Source: Polaromonas sp.
GTDB lineage: Bacteria > Pseudomonadota > Gammaproteobacteria > Burkholderiales > Burkholderiaceae_C
NCBI RefSeq assembly: GCF_012927455.1
Contig: NZ_JABBPE010000006.1
Location: 59,687-123,686, forward strand
Reading direction: 5' to 3'
Length of the DNA stretch: 64,000 nt
In this document: positions 1 to 9,785 of the stretch, in pieces
Position numbering within the stretch: position 1 is the stretch's first letter
How the letters are laid out: every line of letters starts with the position of its first letter
Translations under genes and position numbers: made by a program
The notes under the pieces: generated by a model
Databases searched by the model: none
What the model was told of the DNA's origin: nothing
What the model saw: only the letters and a program-made list of their open reading frames with translations

Positions 1-924
1 GCCGTTCCAGATCACTTCCTGATTGCCTTTGTCGCGCGGCGGCGGACTGCAGACGCAGCGCGCGCCGGCATAACTGTTGTCGATGCCCAGGTCCTCGGCG
101 GTCAAAAACAGGTACTGCGGGCAGGTTTCGGCAAAGACCTTGAGGCCCTGGCCGCGCGCCCAGCGAATCTGCTCAACCGCATCGCGCCCGGACACATGCA
201 CGATGAGGATGGGCACATCGACCAGCTCGGCCAGCGCGATGGCGCGGTGCGTCGCTTCGCGCTCGACCAGCATCGGTCGGCTGTGCGCGTGAAAGCGCGG
301 GGCAGTGCGGCCAGCCGCTTCGAGCTTCTTGGTGAGCCACTCGATACAGTCGGCGTTTTCGGCATGGATCATGGCCATCGCGCCGTGCTGGCGCGCGACG
401 TCGAGCACGTCCAGGATCTGGCCGTCATCGAGCTTGAGATCGTCGTAGGTCATGTAAACCTTGAAAGAGGTGTAGCCTTCGGCAATCAGCGCGGGCAGCT
501 CTTCGCGCAGGACCTGGGGCGTGGGGTCGCTCACGATCAGGTGAAACGCATAGTCGACATGCGCGCGGCCCTCGGCGCGGCGGTGGTAGTCATCGACCGC
601 CGCGCGCAGCGACTGGCCCTTGGCCTGGGCGGCGAAGGGGATGACGGTGGTGGTGCCGCCGCATGCGGCCGAGCGTGTCCCGCTGTCAAACCCGTCGGCC
701 ATGCGCACTGGCGCCTGCATCGGCTGGTCCAGATGGCAGTGCGCATCGACGCCGCCGGGCGTGACCACCCGGCCCAGCGCATCGATCTCGCGCTTGCCAT
801 TGGCCAGGCTGCTGCCCAGCTGCACGATGCGCCCGCCGTTCACGCCGATGTCGGCCGCGAAGGTATCGCTCGCCGTGGCTACCAGTGCGTTGCGGATGAC
901 GAGATCAAAAGTGGGAATGCTCAT
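1..924 (-). CDS. Dihydropyrimidinase / D-hydantoinase (partial, 3' end outside window)
   Basis: A zinc-dependent cyclic amidohydrolase that opens the ring of dihydropyrimidines or 5-substituted hydantoins to N-carbamoyl amino acids in the cytosol. I translated the minus strand by eye: the first 308 codons run open from an ATG to the window edge. The metal-ligand pair is H62-x-H64 in VDAHCHLDQP; the lysine carboxylated in this family is K155 in SFKVYMTYD; further ligands are in MIHAENAD and VHVSGRDAV. It is the last gene of a minus-strand run after an MFS carrier and a racemase-superfamily enzyme, 31 bases downstream of the latter, so the three probably form one ureide or hydantoin utilisation unit. 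The exact substrate (pyrimidine, hydantoin or allantoin-like) cannot be told from sequence alone. The C-terminal part is not in the window. Confidence 0.88.
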   Translation of the reverse strand, partial: MSIPTFDLVIRNALVATASDTFAADIGVNGGRIVQLGSSLANGKREIDALGRVVTPGGVDAHCHLDQPMQAPVRMADGFDSGTRSAACGGTTTVIPFAAQAKGQSLRAAVDDYHRRAEGRAHVDYAFHLIVSDPTPQVLREELPALIAEGYTSFKVYMTYDDLKLDDGQILDVLDVARQHGAMAMIHAENADCIEWLTKKLEAAGRTAPRFHAHSRPMLVEREATHRAIALAELVDVPILIVHVSGRDAVEQIRWARGQGLKVFAETCPQYLFLTAEDLGIDNSYAGARCVCSPPPRDKGNQEVIWNG

Positions 925-955
925 TGTTGTTTGTCCTTGCTTTGGCGCCAAGCCA

Positions 956-1684
956 TCAGGTCATTTCCCGGAACAGGCGGCCCCAGCCTTTGAGCTCGCG
1001 CGGGTCGACATCGATGGTCTTCAGGGCCTTCCAGACCACCGTGGCGACCGAGTCATAAATGGGAATGTCCAGCTCGCGCTCCAGCTCGTCGACCAGCTGC
1101 GCGGCACGCAGGTTGGTGCACAGCGTGGTCAGCGCTTGCGGGCGCTGCCTGGCTGATTCGCGCAGCAGGGCGCGCAGCGTGTCGGGCTCGACTTCGCTGA
1201 AGGCGAAGTTCACCGAAATGCCGAGGTGCTGTTCGGCGATGCACTCGATGCCGATGCCGGCGTAGTTGGCGATGATGCGGCGCTGCACGTCTTCGACATA
1301 GGGCGAGACCAGCCCCAGCGTGCGCGCGCCCTGCAGCGCAAGGATTTCGTTGAGCGCAAGCACCGAGGTCGTGGCCGGGATGCCGGTGGCGTCAAGGATG
1401 CGCGCGCACAGCTGGCGGTCCTTTTCGAAGCCGAGCCAGCTCGCCGACGTGCCGCTCCAGCAGATCACATCGACCCGAGCGTCGGCCAGCAGGCGTGCCG
1501 CCTCCAGGATCTTGCCGTCATCGAACTGTTGCAGCGACTGCTCGCGCAGCGAAATCTCGGTGACGGCAAAGCGCGAGAAATGAGCCGACACGCCCGGCAG
1601 CGTGCTGACCATGGCGCTGGTCAGCGGCTCCAGCGCGGTGTTGGATGACGGCGTCAGCACGCCGATGCGTTTGCGTTTTGTCAT
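956..1684 (-). CDS. Asp/Glu racemase superfamily enzyme (maleate isomerase / arylmalonate decarboxylase-like)
   Basis: A 242-residue cytosolic cofactor-free enzyme of the superfamily that holds Asp/Glu racemase, hydantoin racemase, maleate cis-trans isomerase and arylmalonate decarboxylase. The N-terminus IGVLTPSSNTALEP is typical of the maleate isomerase branch. The two expected catalytic cysteines are C75 (ICWSGTS) and C189 (TLCTNLRA), matching the usual spacing. The start is the ATG giving MTKRKRIGVL; a longer open frame upstream runs into the MFS gene in another frame and is not credible. It lies between the MFS carrier (14 bases upstream) and the dihydropyrimidinase, so it may racemise the hydantoin or act on a related small acid. 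Family call is firm; the substrate is inference. Confidence 0.82.
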   Translation of the reverse strand: MTKRKRIGVLTPSSNTALEPLTSAMVSTLPGVSAHFSRFAVTEISLREQSLQQFDDGKILEAARLLADARVDVICWSGTSASWLGFEKDRQLCARILDATGIPATTSVLALNEILALQGARTLGLVSPYVEDVQRRIIANYAGIGIECIAEQHLGISVNFAFSEVEPDTLRALLRESARQRPQALTTLCTNLRAAQLVDELERELDIPIYDSVATVVWKALKTIDVDPRELKGWGRLFREMT

Positions 1685-1698
1685 GCTGCTGCGGTCAA

Positions 1699-3021
1699 TC
1701 AGACCGGCAGTTTCTTGCTGTAGTCGATCAGCAGCGTCGAGCAGATGAACAACCCTGCGCCCGCGCCGGCAAACAGCATGAGGGCGAGAAAATACGAGCC
1801 CGTCGCCTGCACGATCAGGCCGACCACGATAGGCACGCCTATGCCCGCCACGTTGCCGCCCAGGTTCATGGTGCCGCCCAGAAAGCCGACCCGGTCGCGC
1901 GTCCCGAGGATCGATGGAACGCACCAGAACAGTCCGCACCAGCGCAGGAAAAACAGCGTGACCGAGAGCATCACCACCACGGTGACGGGGTCGGTGATTC
2001 TGGAAACGCTGTAGATCGAGAGCGTGGCAATGATCGAGGAGATGCCGAACAGCGTGCGCAGCACCTTGCTTTGCGAAGCGCCCGCAGCCTTCCATTTGTC
2101 GGCGATCCAGCCGCCGACCATTTCCCCGACGAAGCCCGAGAAAAACATGATGAACACCGCGCCGCCCATCTGCTTGATGTCAAAACCGTGGACCTTGGAC
2201 AGGTAGTTGGGCATCCAGGTCAAGAGGCCGTAAAACAGCGCGTTAAAGCACATCCAGCCAAAAAACATTCCCCAGACCGAGCGGTACTTGAAAAAGTCCA
2301 ACGCGCGGCCGCTGAGGACAGCCGGTTCCCTGGCGCTGTCTTGCGCGTGGGAGGCTTCGATGTAGCGCGCTTCGGCCTCGTTCACGCCGGGATGCTCGCG
2401 CGGATGATTGCGGATATAGCTCCAGGCAAAATATCCTGCGATCACCGTCCCGACGCCGGCAATGACAAAAGCCAGGCGCCAGGAACCCAGCAGTGCGATC
2501 AAGCCGGAGATCAGGATGGCTCCGAGTGCTGCGCCCAGCGGCGCGCCGCCGTCGAGCAGGGTCGCGCCGCGACCGCGTTCGTTCTGAGTCATCCAGATGC
2601 CGTTGAGCTTGCCGCCGGCCGGATAGATCGGCGCCTCGGCCGCTCCCAGCCCGAGCCGCGTCAGGAACAGGGGGACCCAGCCGGTGCAAAGCGCCGCGAT
2701 GGCCTGGAAAAAGCCCCAGCCCAGCGTGGCCGAGGCAATCACGACGCGCGGGCCGTACCTGTCGGCCAACATGCCGCCGGGAATCTGCATCAGCGCGTAA
2801 GTCCAGAAAAACGAGCTCAGCAGCAGTCCCTGCGTCGCCGGCCCGATATCAAACTCCTTGGCGATCAGCGGCATCGCCACCGAGAGCGAGGCCCGGTCGA
2901 TGTAGTTAATCGAAATAAGAAACAGCATCATCAGAAAAATCTTCCATCGCACCTTGGTCGGCGCGGCGTCGGCCACGGCGTTGTCGGCCACGGCGGTTTT
3001 CGCCATCACTAAAGTTTCCAT
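1699..3021 (-). CDS. MFS transporter, anion:cation symporter (ACS) family
   Basis: A 440-residue inner-membrane carrier, 12 membrane segments expected. The first segment and loop read ISINYIDRASLSVAMP and LADRYGPR, the pattern of the ACS family that takes up organic acids such as galactonate, glucarate and hexuronates. I chose the ATG giving METLVMAKTA, which has GGAG ten bases upstream; a second ATG five codons on is possible. The longer frame to 3111 reads through non-conserved sequence. It is the first gene of a minus-strand unit with the racemase and dihydropyrimidinase, so its cargo is more likely a ureide or its acid product than a sugar acid, but its divergent neighbour is a 2-ketogluconate operon, so a sugar acid cannot be excluded. 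Confidence 0.85.
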   Translation of the reverse strand: METLVMAKTAVADNAVADAAPTKVRWKIFLMMLFLISINYIDRASLSVAMPLIAKEFDIGPATQGLLLSSFFWTYALMQIPGGMLADRYGPRVVIASATLGWGFFQAIAALCTGWVPLFLTRLGLGAAEAPIYPAGGKLNGIWMTQNERGRGATLLDGGAPLGAALGAILISGLIALLGSWRLAFVIAGVGTVIAGYFAWSYIRNHPREHPGVNEAEARYIEASHAQDSAREPAVLSGRALDFFKYRSVWGMFFGWMCFNALFYGLLTWMPNYLSKVHGFDIKQMGGAVFIMFFSGFVGEMVGGWIADKWKAAGASQSKVLRTLFGISSIIATLSIYSVSRITDPVTVVVMLSVTLFFLRWCGLFWCVPSILGTRDRVGFLGGTMNLGGNVAGIGVPIVVGLIVQATGSYFLALMLFAGAGAGLFICSTLLIDYSKKLPV

Positions 3022-3163
3022 GGTTTCAGTGCTCCAGTTGTTCCGTTTACGCTTGCGACAAAAAATGCGTCGCCCACCGAGGGCCGGTAGGCCCGGACTT
3101 CGACTGCGCAAGCACCGTAGAAGTCGACCGGTAAAAATATTTTTCCGATGCTTGTCACTTTAT

Positions 3164-3313: not shown

Positions 3314-3361
3314 TTACAACACAGGCATGTTTGCTTTTATAATGCGTTGAAACCGGTTTCA
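3314..3361 (+). promoter_or_regulatory. kgu operon promoter with PtxS/LacI-type operator
   Basis: A -35-like TTACAA (3314-3319), an 18-base spacer and a perfect TATAAT (3338-3343) are followed at 3348-3361 by the perfect palindrome TGAAACCGGTTTCA. This is the 14-base site described for PtxS, the LacI-family regulator of the Pseudomonas 2-ketogluconate operon. It lies where transcription should start, so a bound repressor would block the promoter. No ptxS gene is in the window. The genes downstream include kguE, kguK and kguD, which supports the reading. Confidence 0.75.
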
Positions 3362-3462
3362 GAGCTTGTTGACAGTAGCTCTCCAGCCAGGCTTTGAGGA
3401 AATCTTGTACCAACCAAAGTGACTCAAGCGCTCGCGTCGTTTCCAAGGCCATCGTCTCGTTG

Positions 3463-4134
3463 ATGAACTACACATTCCAATTCGGCGCCGTCTTTGCGGC
3501 TTGGCCGCTGCTGCTCAAAGGCACCTGGAACACGATTGAGCTGTCGCTGCTGGCCATGCTGTTCGGGCTGCTGGTGGCCATTGTTTGCGCCTGGGGCAAG
3601 ACCGCCGGACCGAAACCGCTGCGCTTTGTGATCAACGCTTACATCGAGCTGATCCGCAACACTCCGTTTTTGGTGCAGCTGTTCTTTTTCTTTTTCGCCC
3701 TGCCCGCGCTCGGCCTGCGCTGGTCGGCCTACACCGCTGCGCTGACGGCGATGGTGATCAATCTGGGTGCTTACGCCACCGAGATCATTCGCGCTGGCAT
3801 CGAGTCCATTCCCAAGGGCCAGATCGAAGCCGGCCTGGCGCTCAACCTGAAGCACCACGAGATTTTCCGTTTTGTCATTTTGAAGCCGGCGCTGAAGGCG
3901 ATTTACCCGGCGCTGACCAGCCAGTTCATCCTGCTGATGCTGAGCTCTGCGGTGGTATCAGCCATTTCCGCCGACGACCTGACATCGGTAGCGGCTAATT
4001 TGCAGTCGCAAACCTTTCGCAGCTTTGAGATTTACATCGTCGTTGCTGCGATCTACCTGGTGCTGGCGCTGGCGTTTTCAGCGCTGTTTCGCGTGATTTA
4101 CAAGACCACCCTCAACTACCCGGACCGTCGCTGA
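3463..4134 (+). CDS. ABC transporter permease, polar amino acid (HisM/GlnP) type, kgu operon
   Basis: A 223-residue inner-membrane permease of the polar-amino-acid (PAAT) ABC family. The family loop that contacts the ATPase is seen as AGIESIPKGQIEAGLALNL, and the N-terminal region contains the typical LLLKGTWNTIELS. I start at the ATG giving MNYTFQFG; an in-frame TTG 69 bases upstream would add an unconvincing tail. It is the first gene of a plus-strand operon of two permeases, binding protein, ATPase and three kgu enzymes; its stop overlaps the next start (TGATG). Although the family usually moves amino acids, the operon partners point to 2-ketogluconate or a related sugar acid as cargo; that is inference. 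Confidence 0.85.
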   Translation: MNYTFQFGAVFAAWPLLLKGTWNTIELSLLAMLFGLLVAIVCAWGKTAGPKPLRFVINAYIELIRNTPFLVQLFFFFFALPALGLRWSAYTAALTAMVINLGAYATEIIRAGIESIPKGQIEAGLALNLKHHEIFRFVILKPALKAIYPALTSQFILLMLSSAVVSAISADDLTSVAANLQSQTFRSFEIYIVVAAIYLVLALAFSALFRVIYKTTLNYPDRR

Positions 4135-4787
4135 TGCGCACTTTCGGATTTCCTGAATTTTTGTTCATCCTTGAGGCGGCGAAGTGGACCGTGGCGCTGT
4201 CGCTGATCGCTTTCATAGGCGGCTCGATAGGCGGGCTGATCGTTGCGCTGAGCCGCACGGCCGACAACCGCGCAGCGCGCTGGATCTCGGGCATCTTCAT
4301 CCAGATCTTTCAGGGCACGCCGCTGCTGCTGCAATTGTTTCTGGTGTTTTTTGGCGCACCGGTGCTGGGCTTTGACATCAACCCCTGGCTGGCGGCCGGC
4401 GTGGCGCTGATCTTGAACAGCAGCGCTTTCCTCGGTGAAATCTGGCGCGGCTGCATTCAGGCGGTGCCAGCCGGTCAGACCGAGGCGGCGCACGCGCTCA
4501 GCCTGTCTTACTTTTCCCGCATGCGTGACATCGTCTTGCCGCAGGCCGCCAGGATTGCTCTGGCGCCCACCGTCGGCTACCTGGTGCAGATCATCAAGGG
4601 CACCTCGCTGGCGGCCATCATCGGTTTTGTCGAAGTCACGCGGACCGGCCAGATCATCAACAACGCAACCTTTCAGCCACTGATTGTGTTCAGCGTGGTG
4701 GCGGCGATTTATTTTGTCCTCTGTTGGCCCCTGTCCTTGCTGGCATCCCACATGGAGCGCCGGCAAGCGGCCGCGCTGGCACGCTGA
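4134..4787 (+). CDS. ABC transporter permease, polar amino acid type, second subunit, kgu operon
   Basis: A 217-residue partner of the preceding permease with the same fold. The ATPase-contact loop reads GCIQAVPAGQTEAAHALSL, and FQGTPLLLQLFLVFF is the family's second-segment signature. The ATG overlaps the TGA of the first permease, so the two are translationally coupled, as expected for a 1:1 membrane heterodimer. The binding protein follows 54 bases downstream. Substrate assignment rests only on the operon context. Confidence 0.86.
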   Translation: MRTFGFPEFLFILEAAKWTVALSLIAFIGGSIGGLIVALSRTADNRAARWISGIFIQIFQGTPLLLQLFLVFFGAPVLGFDINPWLAAGVALILNSSAFLGEIWRGCIQAVPAGQTEAAHALSLSYFSRMRDIVLPQAARIALAPTVGYLVQIIKGTSLAAIIGFVEVTRTGQIINNATFQPLIVFSVVAAIYFVLCWPLSLLASHMERRQAAALAR

Positions 4788-4841
4788 ACGGCGCCGCAAA
4801 CTTTCCGTCCTTTTTTTCCACTACAAACCGGAGTCTTCACC

Positions 4842-5648
4842 ATGATCAAACATTTGCAACGCCGCGCATTCACTGGAACCGCTTTGGCCTTGGGCCTGGC
4901 CGCCAACCTGTCGGCTTGGATCCCCGCCGCCAGCGCGCAAACCGTCGCCGATATCAAGAAAAAAGGCGAGTTGACCGTCGGCATGCTGGTGGACTTTCCG
5001 CCTTACGGCACCATGAACAGCGCCAACCAGCCTGATGGCTACGACGCTGACGTGGCACGCCTGATGGCCAAAGACCTGGGCGTCAAGCTCAATCTGGTTC
5101 CCGTCACCGGCCCCAACCGCATTCCGTTTTTACTGACCAACAAGGTCGATCTGCTGGTCGCCTCGCTGGCTGTGACGCCCGAGCGCGCCAAGCAGGTGCA
5201 GTTTTCCAAACCTTACGCTGCCGCCAGCATCGTGCTTTACGGCTCCCAAAAAGTCAGCCTCAAAACCCCGGCTGACCTCAAAGGCAAGCGCGTCGGCGTG
5301 GCCCGTGCCAGCACGCAAGACGTGGCGCTGACCGCCGCAGCCCCTGAAGGCACCGAAATCCGCCGCTTTGACGACGACGCATCGGCGATGCAGGCGCTGC
5401 TGTCGGGCCAGGTCGATGCAATCGGCTGCTCGACCACGGTGGCGGCGCAAATTGCCAAGCGTGCCCCGGCCAACGCCTTTGAAAACAAGTTTGTGTTGCG
5501 CCAGCAGGTGATGGGCGTGGCGATGCGCCCGGGCCAGGACGAGTTGCTGAAAACGGTGGACGACTTTGTCGCCCGCAACACGGCCAATGGCGAACTCAAC
5601 AAGCTTTACCGCAAATGGCTGGAAACCGACCTGCCAAAAATGCAATAA
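4842..5648 (+). CDS. Periplasmic substrate-binding protein, family 3 (PAAT), kgu operon
   Basis: A 268-residue periplasmic binding protein. Residues 1-32 form a secretion signal with a basic start (MIKHLQRRAF), a hydrophobic core and an AASA cleavage site before QTVADIKKKG. The mature part has the family-3 pattern: GELTVGMLVDFPPYG near the N-terminus, DGYDADVARLMAKDLG, and the arginine-bearing SLAVTPERAKQVQFS motif. In amino-acid members that arginine binds the alpha-carboxylate; in a sugar-acid transporter it could bind the C1 carboxylate of 2-ketogluconate. It sits between the permeases and the ATPase of the kgu operon. Confidence 0.87.
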   Translation: MIKHLQRRAFTGTALALGLAANLSAWIPAASAQTVADIKKKGELTVGMLVDFPPYGTMNSANQPDGYDADVARLMAKDLGVKLNLVPVTGPNRIPFLLTNKVDLLVASLAVTPERAKQVQFSKPYAAASIVLYGSQKVSLKTPADLKGKRVGVARASTQDVALTAAAPEGTEIRRFDDDASAMQALLSGQVDAIGCSTTVAAQIAKRAPANAFENKFVLRQQVMGVAMRPGQDELLKTVDDFVARNTANGELNKLYRKWLETDLPKMQ

Positions 5649-5666
5649 ATCCTGGAACTTGTTTTC

Positions 5667-6441
<775 letters not shown>

Positions 6442-6452
<11 letters not shown>

Positions 6453-7272
6453 AGTCCCGACCACTACCCGATCCACCCGCCCCTTGGCCGAACCACCTAT
6501 CCTGATTTCGCTGTCGGCCTTTGGCGCAGCCGAAGTGCGGCGCCACGGCCAGCGCTGGTTTGCCCAGCTCAGCCATGCGGCCGGTGCCGATGGCATTGAA
6601 GTGCGCAGCGAACTGCTGGTCGATGCTGCGAACGAACTGCCTGCCATCGCCCGCGCCGTTCAAAGCGCCGCCATGCAGGTGGTCTATTCCAGTGCCGACT
6701 ACCTGTGGGCCGCAGACGGCACGCTGGATGCGCCCGCGCTGGATCGAGCATTGGCCGCCGCCCAAGCTTTGGGCGCGCCGCGTCTGAAAATGGCTATGGG
6801 CGGTTTCGGCCCCGCGTCCCACGGCTCCTTTGCAGCGCTGCAAGACCGCCTTCTAGCCGCCAACACCGAGCTGGTGATAGAAAACGACCAGACCCCGGCA
6901 GCTGGCACGCTGGCTGCTCTGCAAGACTTTTTTGGCGCTGCCAAGACGCAGGGATTTTTTTGGGGTATGACCTTTGACATGGGCAACTGGCACTGGACCG
7001 GCGAATGTCCGCTGCAAGCTGCCAGCGCGCTGGCAGCGCAGGTGCGCTATGTGCATTGCAAGGGGGTGCAGCGTCAGCCGCAGCGCTGGGTCGCCGTGCC
7101 GCTGGCCGAATCGAGCGCGCCTTGGCGCGCCGTGCTGCGCGCCTTGCCGGCCGATGTGCCCTGGGCGATTGAATACCCGCTGGCAGGAGACGATCTGCTG
7201 GACGTGACGCGCCGGGAAATCGAGCAGTTGCGCAGCGTTGCCGTCAGCCTTCAGCAACGGGCAAGCCCATGA
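6442..7272 (+). CDS. kguE: KguE-like sugar epimerase/isomerase (TIM barrel)
   Basis: A 276-residue protein of the xylose-isomerase-like TIM-barrel superfamily. It corresponds to KguE, the first gene of the Pseudomonas 2-ketogluconate operon, whose exact reaction is not firmly known. Barrel features include [19 protein letters not shown] (acidic metal ligand), TFDMGNWHW and RYVHCKG. It begins inside the ATPase gene and ends with an ATGA overlap into the PfkB kinase. I assign the symbol from the order epimerase-kinase-reductase and the PtxS-type operator upstream; on sequence alone it is only a TIM-barrel isomerase/epimerase. Confidence 0.75.
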
Positions 7273-8216
7273 GCCACGCTTTGGACGTCATTACTTTTGG
7301 CGAAGCCATGATGCTGCTGGTCGCTGACCGGCCCGGCCCCCTGGAGCATGCCGAATTTTTTCACAAGCGCACGGCCGGTGCGGAAACCAACGTCGCCATC
7401 GGCCTGGCGCGTCTGGGACTCAAGGTCGGCTGGGCCAGCCGCCTGGGCACTGATTCGATGGGCCGCTATTTGCTGGACGCCATGGTTAGGGAAGGCATCG
7501 ACTGCTCGCACGTCGTCTGCGACCCCTCGCAGAAAACCGGTTTCCAGTTCAAGGGCCAGGTCAGCGACGGCAGCGACCCGCCGGTGGAATACCACCGCCA
7601 GGGCTCGGCGGCCAGCCATATGGACCTGCGCGATATTGACGTAGCCTGGCTGCTGTCGGCGCGGCATCTGCATGCCACCGGCGTGTTTGCCGCAGTCTCA
7701 GCCACCACTCTGCCGGCCGCCCGCAAAACCATGAACCTCATGCGCGCGGCCGGCCGCAGCGTGTCGTTCGACCCTAACCTTCGCCCGACGTTGTGGGCCA
7801 CGCCGGCTCGGATGCGCGAAGCCATTAATGACCTGGCGGCGCGCGCCGACTGGGTGCTGCCGGGGCTGGAAGAGGGCCACTTTTTGACGGGCGAAGCCAC
7901 GCCCGAGGGCATTGCGCGCTATTACCGCCAAGGCGGCGCCACGCTGGTGGTGGTCAAGCTGGGCTCGGAAGGCGCCTGGTTTGACAGCGACACGGCCGGT
8001 AGCGGCCATGTGCCGGGCTTTGCGGTCGCCGAGGTGGTTGACACCGTGGGTGCCGGCGACGGCTTTGCCGTCGGCGTGATCAGCGCGCTGCTCGATGGCC
8101 TGAGCGTGCCCGACGCCGTGAAGCGCGGCACCTGGATTGGCGCGCGCGCCGTACAGGTGCTCGGCGACAGCGAAGGCTTGCCGACGCGGTCCGAACTCGA
8201 CCACGCTAAACTTTAA
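7269..8216 (+). CDS. kguK: 2-ketogluconate kinase, PfkB family
   Basis: A 315-residue ribokinase-family sugar kinase that would phosphorylate 2-ketogluconate at C6. N-terminal PfkB features are FGEAMMLL and GAETNVAIGLARLG; the second PfkB signature DTVGAGDGF (residues 258-266) contains the catalytic base D264. The closely related 2-keto-3-deoxygluconate kinases have the same motifs, so the alternative name kdgK is possible; the flanking kguE and kguD favour 2-ketogluconate. Start overlaps the kguE stop (ATGA), and kguD starts three bases after its stop. Confidence 0.8.
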   Translation: MSHALDVITFGEAMMLLVADRPGPLEHAEFFHKRTAGAETNVAIGLARLGLKVGWASRLGTDSMGRYLLDAMVREGIDCSHVVCDPSQKTGFQFKGQVSDGSDPPVEYHRQGSAASHMDLRDIDVAWLLSARHLHATGVFAAVSATTLPAARKTMNLMRAAGRSVSFDPNLRPTLWATPARMREAINDLAARADWVLPGLEEGHFLTGEATPEGIARYYRQGGATLVVVKLGSEGAWFDSDTAGSGHVPGFAVAEVVDTVGAGDGFAVGVISALLDGLSVPDAVKRGTWIGARAVQVLGDSEGLPTRSELDHAKL

Positions 8217-8219
8217 TCC

Positions 8220-9266
8220 ATGGTCAACGACAGCCCCCGCAAAAAGGTTCTGGTCTTCCGCGAACTGCCGCCCGACCAGTTGGCGCGACTGCAGGCACAG
8301 CACGACGTGAGCGTGGCCAATCCGCGCGAGCCTGAACAACTGGCCGCGTTCAACGCGGCACTGGGCAGCGCCCAGGGCATGATAGGCGCCAGCTACCCCA
8401 TCAACGAAGCCGTGCTGGCCTGCGCGCCACGGCTCCAGGTAATTTCCAGCGTGTCGGTCGGCGTTGACAACTACACCCTGAGCGCGCTGGCGGCGCGCGG
8501 CATCGTGCTGTGCTACACGCCCGGCGTGCTGACCGAAACCACCGCGGACACGATTTTTGCGCTCGTCATGGCGACCAGCCGCCGCCTGGTCGAACTCGCC
8601 AACCATGTGCGCGAAGGTCACTGGTCGCGCAACATTGGCGAAGAACTGTTTGGCTGGGACGTGCATGGCAAAACACTGGGCCTGCTCGGTTTTGGACGCA
8701 TCGGCCAGGCCGTGGCGCGGCGCGCGGCGCTGGGCTTTGGCATGCCGGTGCTGTACCACAGCCGCCACCCGGTAAACCTGGCCACGGCGGCGCCCGATCT
8801 GCTCGGCAAGGCGGTGCACACCCCATTCGATGACTTACTGCAACGCGCCGACATCGTCGCCGCCGTGCTGCCCTTGTCGAACGAAACCCGTGGCCTGATG
8901 GGTCCGCGCGAATTTGGTCTGATGAAAGCCGGCGCCATTTTCATCAACGGCGCACGCGGCGCCATCGTGCAAGAGGCAGCCCTGCTGCAGGCACTTAACC
9001 AGGGCGGACTGCGCGCTGCCGGGCTGGATGTGTTTGCGACAGAGCCGCTGCCCATGGGTTCCCCCTTGCGCCGGCACCCCCGCGTAACCGCTCTACCGCA
9101 CATCGGCTCGGCCACCTTTGAAACGCGCCATGCCATGGCGGAACTGGCCACCACCAATTTGCTGCAGGCGCTGGCGGGCGAGCGGCCGCTCGCCGTGTTC
9201 GATACCTCGGCCGGCTTGTCGCCAGCACCGCTTGCAGGCCAGCGCGATGGGCCAGTCACCGGTTGA
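8220..9266 (+). CDS. kguD: 2-keto-6-phosphogluconate reductase, D-2-hydroxyacid dehydrogenase family
   Basis: A 348-residue NAD(P)H-dependent reductase that would turn 2-keto-6-phosphogluconate into 6-phosphogluconate, feeding the Entner-Doudoroff or pentose-phosphate route. The dinucleotide motif GLLGFGRIGQA lies near residue 155. Catalytic residues are the arginine in NGARGAIV, the glutamate in FATEPLP and the histidine in LPHIGSAT. VSVGVDNYTLSAL is the hallmark of the glyoxylate/2-ketogluconate reductase branch. It is the last gene of the operon. A short interspersed repeat starts five bases after its stop. Confidence 0.83.
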   Translation: MVNDSPRKKVLVFRELPPDQLARLQAQHDVSVANPREPEQLAAFNAALGSAQGMIGASYPINEAVLACAPRLQVISSVSVGVDNYTLSALAARGIVLCYTPGVLTETTADTIFALVMATSRRLVELANHVREGHWSRNIGEELFGWDVHGKTLGLLGFGRIGQAVARRAALGFGMPVLYHSRHPVNLATAAPDLLGKAVHTPFDDLLQRADIVAAVLPLSNETRGLMGPREFGLMKAGAIFINGARGAIVQEAALLQALNQGGLRAAGLDVFATEPLPMGSPLRRHPRVTALPHIGSATFETRHAMAELATTNLLQALAGERPLAVFDTSAGLSPAPLAGQRDGPVTG

Positions 9267-9455: not shown

Positions 9456-9785
9456 ATGGCCATTTCTCACGCCGCTTCGGGGCAGCTTCTTGACATTCAT
9501 TCCCTCACCGAGCAGTTCTCTGAAACGCGCACCTTCGCCGTGTTCAAAACCGACCAGCTCGAAGTCATGCGGTTGATGGTGCCTGCGCATAAAGCTGTGC
9601 CCTCGCACCAGGTCAAAGGCGAGGTCACGGTTCAATGCCTGGAAGGCGAAGTGGATTTCACGGCTGACGGAAAGGCCCAACGCATGAAAGCCGGACAGCT
9701 GGTGTGGCTGGCCGGTGGCGTGGCGCATGGTTTGACGGCCGTGCGCGACTCGACGCTACTGGTGACGCTGGTTTTACGCAAATAA
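9456..9785 (+). CDS. Cupin-domain protein
   Basis: A 109-residue single-domain cupin. The barrel motifs are seen in VPAHKAVPSHQVKGEVTVQ and GQLVWLAGGVAHGLTA, with possible metal-ligand histidines in both. Start is the ATG giving MAISHAASG, preceded by GGAG seven bases upstream. It stands alone between the kgu operon and the convergent gpsA. Single cupins of this kind bind small ligands or metals; no function can be assigned. The upstream in-frame extension to 9369 has no ribosome-binding site and is rejected. Confidence 0.75.
   Translation: MAISHAASGQLLDIHSLTEQFSETRTFAVFKTDQLEVMRLMVPAHKAVPSHQVKGEVTVQCLEGEVDFTADGKAQRMKAGQLVWLAGGVAHGLTAVRDSTLLVTLVLRK

What the first reader, a model, noticed from the sequence alone, without database searches (positions are those of the whole stretch)
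3314..9266. 2-ketogluconate operon with an exact PtxS operator and an ABC importer in place of KguT
Seen: a promoter (TTACAA, 18 bases, TATAAT) with TGAAACCGGTTTCA at the start site, followed by two PAAT permeases, a family-3 binding protein, an ATPase, then KguE-, KguK- and KguD-like genes with overlapping or 3-base junctions. Known: in Pseudomonas the kguE-kguK-kguT-kguD operon uses an MFS carrier and is repressed by PtxS at that 14-base palindrome. Inference: here a polar-amino-acid-type ABC importer has taken the place of KguT, so this transporter family has been recruited for a sugar acid, and a PtxS homologue elsewhere in the genome controls it. I know of no description of a PAAT importer for 2-ketogluconate, but cannot search.
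Basis: partly seen in the sequence, partly recalled or inferred. Interest (0 to 1): 0.75.

Follow-up and report, generated by a model that had tools for sequence, protein, structure and literature searches.

The report
ABC importer for 2-ketogluconate
In this bacterium, four genes for an ABC importer of the amino-acid type lie directly ahead of three genes resembling those that break down the sugar acid 2-ketogluconate, behind a likely shared promoter and a perfect copy of the known PtxS repressor site, so the importer is predicted to take up 2-ketogluconate rather than an amino acid.

Summary
In detail: promoter-like sequence, exact 14-base PtxS palindrome, two PAAT permeases, a family-3 binding protein, an ATPase, then kguE-, kguK- and kguD-like genes. 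The regulator exists: the one LacI-family gene of the assembly above the Pfam cut-off lies about 6.5 kb upstream, outside the window, with its own one-mismatch palindrome. The arrangement is widespread: of 62 related loci with the first permease, upstream DNA and a kgu gene, 59 have the palindrome (54 exact) and 59 a ptxS-like gene; none of the 85 loci shows a KguT-like carrier in the DNA held. The binding protein keeps the conserved Arg but has Ser where seven of seven E. coli family-3 binding proteins have Asp; 11 pocket positions are identical in 64 of 64 kgu-linked copies. Best reading: an ATP-driven 2-ketogluconate scavenger that databases name an amino-acid transporter. The ligand is inferred, not shown. 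Against it: seven Pandoraea genomes keep the same pocket without the kinase, and 10 of 26 control proteins also lack the Asp. New variant of a known operon.

The parts
3314..3343 (+). predicted promoter: TTACAA, 18 bases, TATAAT
   Evidence: sequence; TATAAT lies 4 bases before the operator here and in L008, L010, L011, L013, L014, L017, L018, L019, L021 and L084 (3 in L020, 5 in L009); Variovorax- and Acidovorax-type loci have other sequence there
3348..3361 (.). PtxS operator, exact TGAAACCGGTTTCA, near the expected transcription start
   Evidence: same site footprinted in Pseudomonas (passages of PMC11678583 and PMC3402500); within one mismatch in 59 of 62 kgu-linked loci
3463..4134 (+). 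PAAT-type permease 1
   Evidence: BPD_transp_1 and HEQRo_perm_3TM
4134..4787 (+). PAAT-type permease 2
   Evidence: BPD_transp_1 and HEQRo_perm_3TM
4842..5648 (+). family-3 solute-binding protein; R115 kept, S197 at the position of the ammonium-binding Asp
   Evidence: SBP_bac_3; alignments; AlphaFold2 model pLDDT 87 with PAAT-fold matches
5667..6452 (+). PAAT-type ABC ATPase
   Evidence: ABC_tran; best NCBIfam match GlnQ, below its cut-off
6442..7272 (+). KguE-like TIM-barrel protein
   Evidence: matches PA2260 (1yx1); 38% to a Klebsiella protein annotated KguE
7269..8216 (+). KguK-like PfkB kinase (predicted 2-ketogluconate kinase)
   Evidence: PfkB; 56% to a Klebsiella protein annotated 2-ketogluconate kinase; full-length match to 4du5
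8220..9266 (+). KguD-like 2-hydroxyacid dehydrogenase (predicted 2-keto-6-phosphogluconate reductase)
   Evidence: 2-Hacid_dh; best solved relative 'Probable 2-ketogluconate reductase'; 50% to a Klebsiella protein annotated 2-ketogluconate 6-phosphate reductase

Best explanation
The seven genes at 3463-9266 form one predicted operon that likely imports 2-ketogluconate with a binding-protein-dependent ABC transporter of the polar-amino-acid (PAAT) type, and whose other products would phosphorylate it (KguK) and reduce it to 6-phosphogluconate (KguD). Shown by sequence: gene order, tight junctions, a promoter-like sequence and the exact PtxS palindrome; a PtxS-like gene with its own near-palindrome about 6.5 kb upstream; conservation of this set in dozens of Burkholderiales loci; no KguT-like carrier in the held DNA of those loci; a pocket that keeps the conserved Arg but has Ser at the Asp position. 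Inferred: the ligand, PtxS binding at the site, induction by 2-ketogluconate, and the enzyme steps. Likely working: free PtxS sits on 3348-3361 over the start site and blocks transcription; 2-ketogluconate releases it; the binding protein catches external 2-ketogluconate by its carboxylate through R115 and hands it to the permease pair; KguK and KguD feed it into the Entner-Doudoroff route. The assembly has a KDPG aldolase but no detectable Gluconate_2-dh3 subunit, so the cell probably scavenges 2-ketogluconate made by others.
For: Operator and regulator. Conserved cluster: (best 80 of 150 confirmed loci kept). Of 85 loci examined (those 80 plus L106-L110), 73 had an intact first permease start and at least 300 upstream bases; 62 of these had a kgu gene, of which 59 had the palindrome within one mismatch (54 exact; none in L025, L106, L110) and 59 a ptxS-like gene (not found in L025, L032, L106); E, K and D were all found in 48, K and D without E in 10. 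MFS clusters without these ABC genes: L111-L113, Klebsiella L123, Enterobacter L171. No KguT-like hit at 1e-5 in the 85 loci; best own-genome relative 29% identical, against 74-75% between L111-L113 and Klebsiella. Pocket: Arg in 86 of 86 aligned binding proteins; Ser in 64 of 64 with at least two kgu genes within 6 kb (L110, with Pro, counted apart); Asp in 7 of 7 E. coli family-3 binding proteins (six with an assigned amino-acid ligand, ArtI putative) and 6 of 6 other family-3 proteins of this assembly. Eleven pocket positions are identical in those 64. KDPG aldolase present; Gluconate_2-dh3 not found.
Against: I found no binding or growth data for any of these proteins. Seven of seven Pandoraea genomes with the identical 11-position pocket have no KguK-like kinase at 1e-50; five of them show the binding protein without the partner genes nearby and without a close permease-1 orthologue in the genome. 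The Asp is also missing in 10 of 26 non-orthologous family-3 proteins of relatives, and a sister group without it sits near nitrogen-metabolism-like genes, so its loss argues against a common amino acid but not specifically for a sugar acid. L025 (E, K, D) and L106 (K only) have the importer with neither palindrome nor ptxS-like gene in the held DNA. Another MFS carrier of the assembly (29% to KguT) could also take up the compound.
Confidence: 0.8

Rival explanations
1. The importer takes up a related sugar acid or conjugate (for example 2-keto-gulonate, 2-keto-3-deoxygluconate or gluconate) that feeds the same kinase and reductase.
For: [quoted passage not shown] A related PAAT importer in L115 lies beside altronate-dehydratase, mannitol-dehydrogenase, alcohol-dehydrogenase and PfkB genes.
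Against: Operator and PtxS-like regulator are those of the 2-ketogluconate regulon (passages); K, D and mostly E occur together as in MFS-type clusters.
Confidence: 0.12
2. The importer is an ordinary amino-acid transporter that merely shares the promoter.
For: Where a source names its homologues, the names are of the amino-acid type or generic; nearly all structural neighbours listed are amino-acid or opine binding proteins or cyclohexadienyl dehydratases.
Against: Ser at the ammonium Asp, Leu at the D11 position and Gly at the F52 position in 64 of 64 kgu-linked copies; the loci would then show no dedicated 2-ketogluconate carrier.
Confidence: 0.05
3. Uptake runs through another carrier of the genome and the ABC system is an accessory or sensor.
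For: An MFS protein 29% identical to KguT exists on contig 15; five Pandoraea loci show only the binding protein.
Against: The ABC genes are kept together with kgu genes across many genera.
Confidence: 0.03

Closest known systems
Pseudomonas kguE-kguK-kguT-kguD operon under PtxS
   Same: E, K and D relatives; identical 14-base operator at the start site; LacI-type regulator with a site at its own promoter (passages)
   Different: KguT carrier absent; four PAAT-type ABC genes come first instead
   Same: PtxS-like, KguE, KguK and KguD relatives together
   Different: MFS carrier between K and D; near-operator TGGAACCGGTTCCA in L111-L113
PAAT amino-acid importers (GlnHPQ, HisJQMP, ArtJMQP)
   Same: Fold, gene make-up, conserved Arg of the binding protein
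   Different: Ser at the position of the ammonium Asp; linked to sugar-acid genes
PAAT binding proteins of opines and sugar conjugates (NocT, OccJ, SocA)
   Same: Precedent for PAAT binding proteins with larger, sugar-derived ligands (structure titles)
   Different: Those ligands still carry an amino-acid part (recalled); 2-ketogluconate has none

Membership tests
PtxS-controlled kgu operon | exact PtxS palindrome at the promoter | tested here: met
PtxS-controlled kgu operon | PtxS-like LacI regulator in the genome with its own site | tested here: met
   own site has one mismatch
PtxS-controlled kgu operon | kguE, kguK and kguD relatives together | tested here: met
PtxS-controlled kgu operon | KguT MFS carrier in the operon | tested here: not met
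   best own-genome relative 29% identical. Hence filed as a variant.
PtxS-controlled kgu operon | repression relieved by 2-ketogluconate | not testable with these tools
   needs purified protein
PAAT ABC importers (3.A.1.3, number recalled) | family-3 binding protein, two HEQRo-type permeases, PAAT-type ATPase | tested here: met
PAAT amino-acid binding proteins | Arg for carboxylate and Asp for ammonium (roles recalled) | tested here: not met
   Arg met (R115), Asp not met (S197)
2-ketogluconate importer | binding and uptake of 2-ketogluconate | not testable with these tools
   needs binding or growth assays

The most novel reading that the evidence does not exclude
A branch of the polar-amino-acid importer family has become a set of sugar-acid importers by dropping the amine clamp of its binding protein while keeping the carboxylate Arg. 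It serves 2-ketogluconate in the kgu clade, was brought into a kgu cluster a second time in the L110 lineage with a different pocket, and serves an altronate- or galactonate-like route in L115; such proteins pass under amino-acid names in databases.
Probability: 0.45. Interest if true: 0.62.

Novelty: new variant of a known kind. Interest (0 to 1): 0.52.

Why it matters
If true, a widespread Burkholderiales importer now named as an amino-acid transporter is a scavenger of 2-ketogluconate, a compound that glucose-oxidising neighbours release. It would change carbon-source predictions for Variovorax, Acidovorax, Polaromonas, Rhodoferax and Alcaligenaceae, and would suggest a sequence mark (Arg kept, Asp lost) for finding other non-amino-acid ligands in a very large transporter family.

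Tried and rejected
A class-wide kinase search was meant to reach Pseudomonas but found only the own genome among 274 at 1e-70, so MFS-type references came from plasmid records and order-mates. The Cupriavidus record H10 had no listed gene over the stretch, and the Mycetohabitans record H1 showed a sugar kinase without kgu partners. Loss of the Asp as proof of a sugar-acid ligand was rejected once 26 control proteins gave Asp in only 16. That the whole Asp-lacking clade is sugar-acid specific was not supported by the sister group L144/L146/L160/L161, judged by eye from ORF translations of three of its neighbourhoods. The third near-palindrome (contig 17) was set aside as intragenic. The MFS gene at 1699-3027 was rejected as the missing KguT: 24-26% identical to the Klebsiella KguT and next to the hydantoin-type genes. 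The LacI-regulon paper PMC4052901 (outline and passages only) has no occurrence of PtxS or ketogluconate in its main text; supplements could not be searched. A fold comparison gave the PAAT fold but no sugar-acid-bound relative among the rows shown.
Full report
What is there. The window holds a promoter-like sequence (TTACAA, 18 bases, TATAAT, 3314-3343), an exact TGAAACCGGTTTCA at 3348-3361 and seven tightly packed genes to 9266: two PAAT permeases, a family-3 binding protein, an ATPase, and relatives of KguE, KguK and KguD. Solved relatives fit: E matches 'hypothetical protein PA2260' (1yx1; that PA2260 is kguE of P. aeruginosa is recalled), D's best match is 'Probable 2-ketogluconate reductase' (9m0t), and K matches the 'PfkB' chain 4du5 over its full length. 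Identities to a Klebsiella cluster annotated as 2-ketogluconate utilisation are 38% (E), 56% (K), 50% (D), and 35% and 53% for the two pieces of its split PtxS gene.

Regulator. The assembly (4.47 Mb, 22 contigs, 99.65% complete) has one LacI-HTH match above the Pfam cut-off and one weaker, partial match below it. The first belongs to a 358-residue protein at contig 2, 56558-57634, ending about 2 kb before the window starts, with TGAAACTGGTTTCA 42 bases before its start codon. Three places in the assembly lie within one mismatch of the palindrome (the reversed control pattern has one): this operon, the regulator, and an intragenic one on contig 17. In Pseudomonas the same palindrome is the footprinted PtxS site and overlaps the kgu start site, PtxS also binds its own promoter, and 2-ketogluconate is the effector (passages of PMC11678583 and PMC3402500).

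Conservation. Of the 62, 59 had the palindrome within one mismatch inside 900 bases (54 exact), 59 a ptxS-like gene, 48 all of E, K and D, and 10 K and D without E. Exceptions: no such palindrome in L025, L106, L110; no ptxS-like gene found in L025, L032, L106 (the DNA held for L032 ends soon after kguD). Of the 11 loci without kgu genes in the held DNA, four have the palindrome (L009, L040, L067, L084, where little or no downstream DNA is held) and seven do not (L056, L057, L064, L075, L076, L080, L081). Flanking bases drift while the 14 bases stay, which is what a binding site in use looks like.

Transporter in KguT's place. An order-wide kinase search found 18 of 300 genomes; besides the own genome I fetched 16 of the other 17 neighbourhoods (the weakest, in G259, was left out). 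Four carry this importer (L106 with K only, L107-L109), one a divergent PAAT importer (L110), three the MFS order E-K-T-D-PtxS (L111-L113), and eight (L114-L121) no full kgu cluster of either kind; of these L118 has an E relative, L117 a distant MFS gene beside K, and L115 the related PAAT importer described below. Klebsiella and Enterobacter records have PtxS-E-K-MFS-D. The Klebsiella KguT finds 74-75% matches in L111-L113 and no match at 1e-5 in the 85 loci; in the own genome its best match is 29% identical. In a kinase tree of 30 rows, the 16 kinases with this importer lie on one side of a branch (support 80/98) with L110 apart. Which carrier came first is not shown.

Binding protein. The model (pLDDT 87) has the PAAT fold. 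On an alignment, 11 pocket positions of E. coli ArgT (mature numbering; the choice is partly recalled, partly taken from mutants named in structure titles) read D-Y-F-S-S-S-R-L-T-Q-D in ArgT and L-F-G-A-S-A-R-A-T-Q-S in the window; the window pattern is the same in 64 of 64 copies with at least two kgu genes within 6 kb, L110 counted apart. The mapping rests on sequence alignment, not on coordinates. The Arg is kept in 86 of 86. The last position is Asp in 7 of 7 E. coli family-3 binding proteins (ArtI is annotated only as putative) and 6 of 6 other family-3 proteins of the assembly, Ser here. In 26 non-orthologous family-3 proteins of relatives (28 of the matches whose loci were given to the script; one yielded no usable protein, one was an orthologue set aside) it is Asp in 16, Gly in 7, Ser in 2, Asn in 1, so its loss speaks against a standard amino acid but is not unique. 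In a tree of 63 rows (25 of the 87 importer-related proteins were given) the clade of 17 kgu-linked rows plus Pandoraea L056 has 100/100 support and a wider 29-row clade lacking the Asp 100/99. The wider clade holds L115, next to altronate-dehydratase, mannitol-dehydrogenase, zinc alcohol-dehydrogenase and PfkB genes, but also a group near nitrilase- and lyase-like genes (judged by eye).

Against. In seven of seven Pandoraea genomes with an orthologous binding protein and the identical 11-position pocket, no KguK-like kinase is found at 1e-50. Two loci keep all four ABC genes; five show only the binding protein, and their genomes have no close permease-1 orthologue (best about 47-48%). In the one of these five whose ORFs I read (L060), the gene lies between histone-like and PadR-like genes, as the full set does in L056 (by eye). 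In four other outgroup genomes (L075, L076, L080, L081) a kinase was found only in L080's, far from the importer. Either these use 2-ketogluconate by another route or the ligand is wider than I propose. The own assembly lacks a Gluconate_2-dh3 match and has a KDPG aldolase, which fits scavenging rather than periplasmic production, but other gluconate dehydrogenases were not searched.

Literature. Eight full-text searches (three listings were capped, at 40 of 186, 15 of 834 and 12 of 80) and passages of PMC4052901, PMC6651773, PMC2842291 and PMC9007349 showed me no ABC importer for 2-ketogluconate. [quoted passage not shown]

Verdict. A real, conserved PtxS-type kgu operon in which a PAAT-type ABC importer stands where other clusters have KguT; 2-ketogluconate as its ligand is likely but untested.

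Noticed in passing
contig 2 57636-62713 (L004 12637-17714; window 1-3027 in part): A GntR-type regulator, Asp/Glu/hydantoin racemase, amidohydrolase, arylmalonate-decarboxylase-like gene and MFS carrier lie between ptxS and the operon; in relatives such as L008, L014 and L019 ptxS is directly adjacent, so this cluster looks inserted here.
   Followed up: partly
L060, L061, L062, L066, L068: Five Pandoraea loci show the binding-protein gene with an unchanged pocket but no permease or ATPase gene beside it; in L060, the one read in detail, it lies at the place where L056 has the full set.
   Followed up: partly
L110 1853-9146: A second, divergent PAAT importer (binding protein about 43% identical, order SBP-P1-P2-ATP) inside a PtxS-E-K-D cluster, with sites TGGAACCGGTTCCA and TGAAACCGGTACCA.
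   Followed up: partly
L115 6973-13968: A related PAAT importer lacking the ammonium Asp next to altronate-dehydratase, mannitol-dehydrogenase, zinc alcohol-dehydrogenase and PfkB genes, possibly a galactonate or altronate importer.
   Followed up: partly
L111-L113: MFS-type kgu clusters carry TGGAACCGGTTCCA upstream of kguE, a two-base variant of the PtxS palindrome, together with a more distant PtxS (37-39% identical).
   Followed up: no
window 9456-9785: A small cupin gene (109 residues) follows kguD about 190 bases downstream; it had no tblastn hit at 1e-8 in the 80 related loci.
   Followed up: partly
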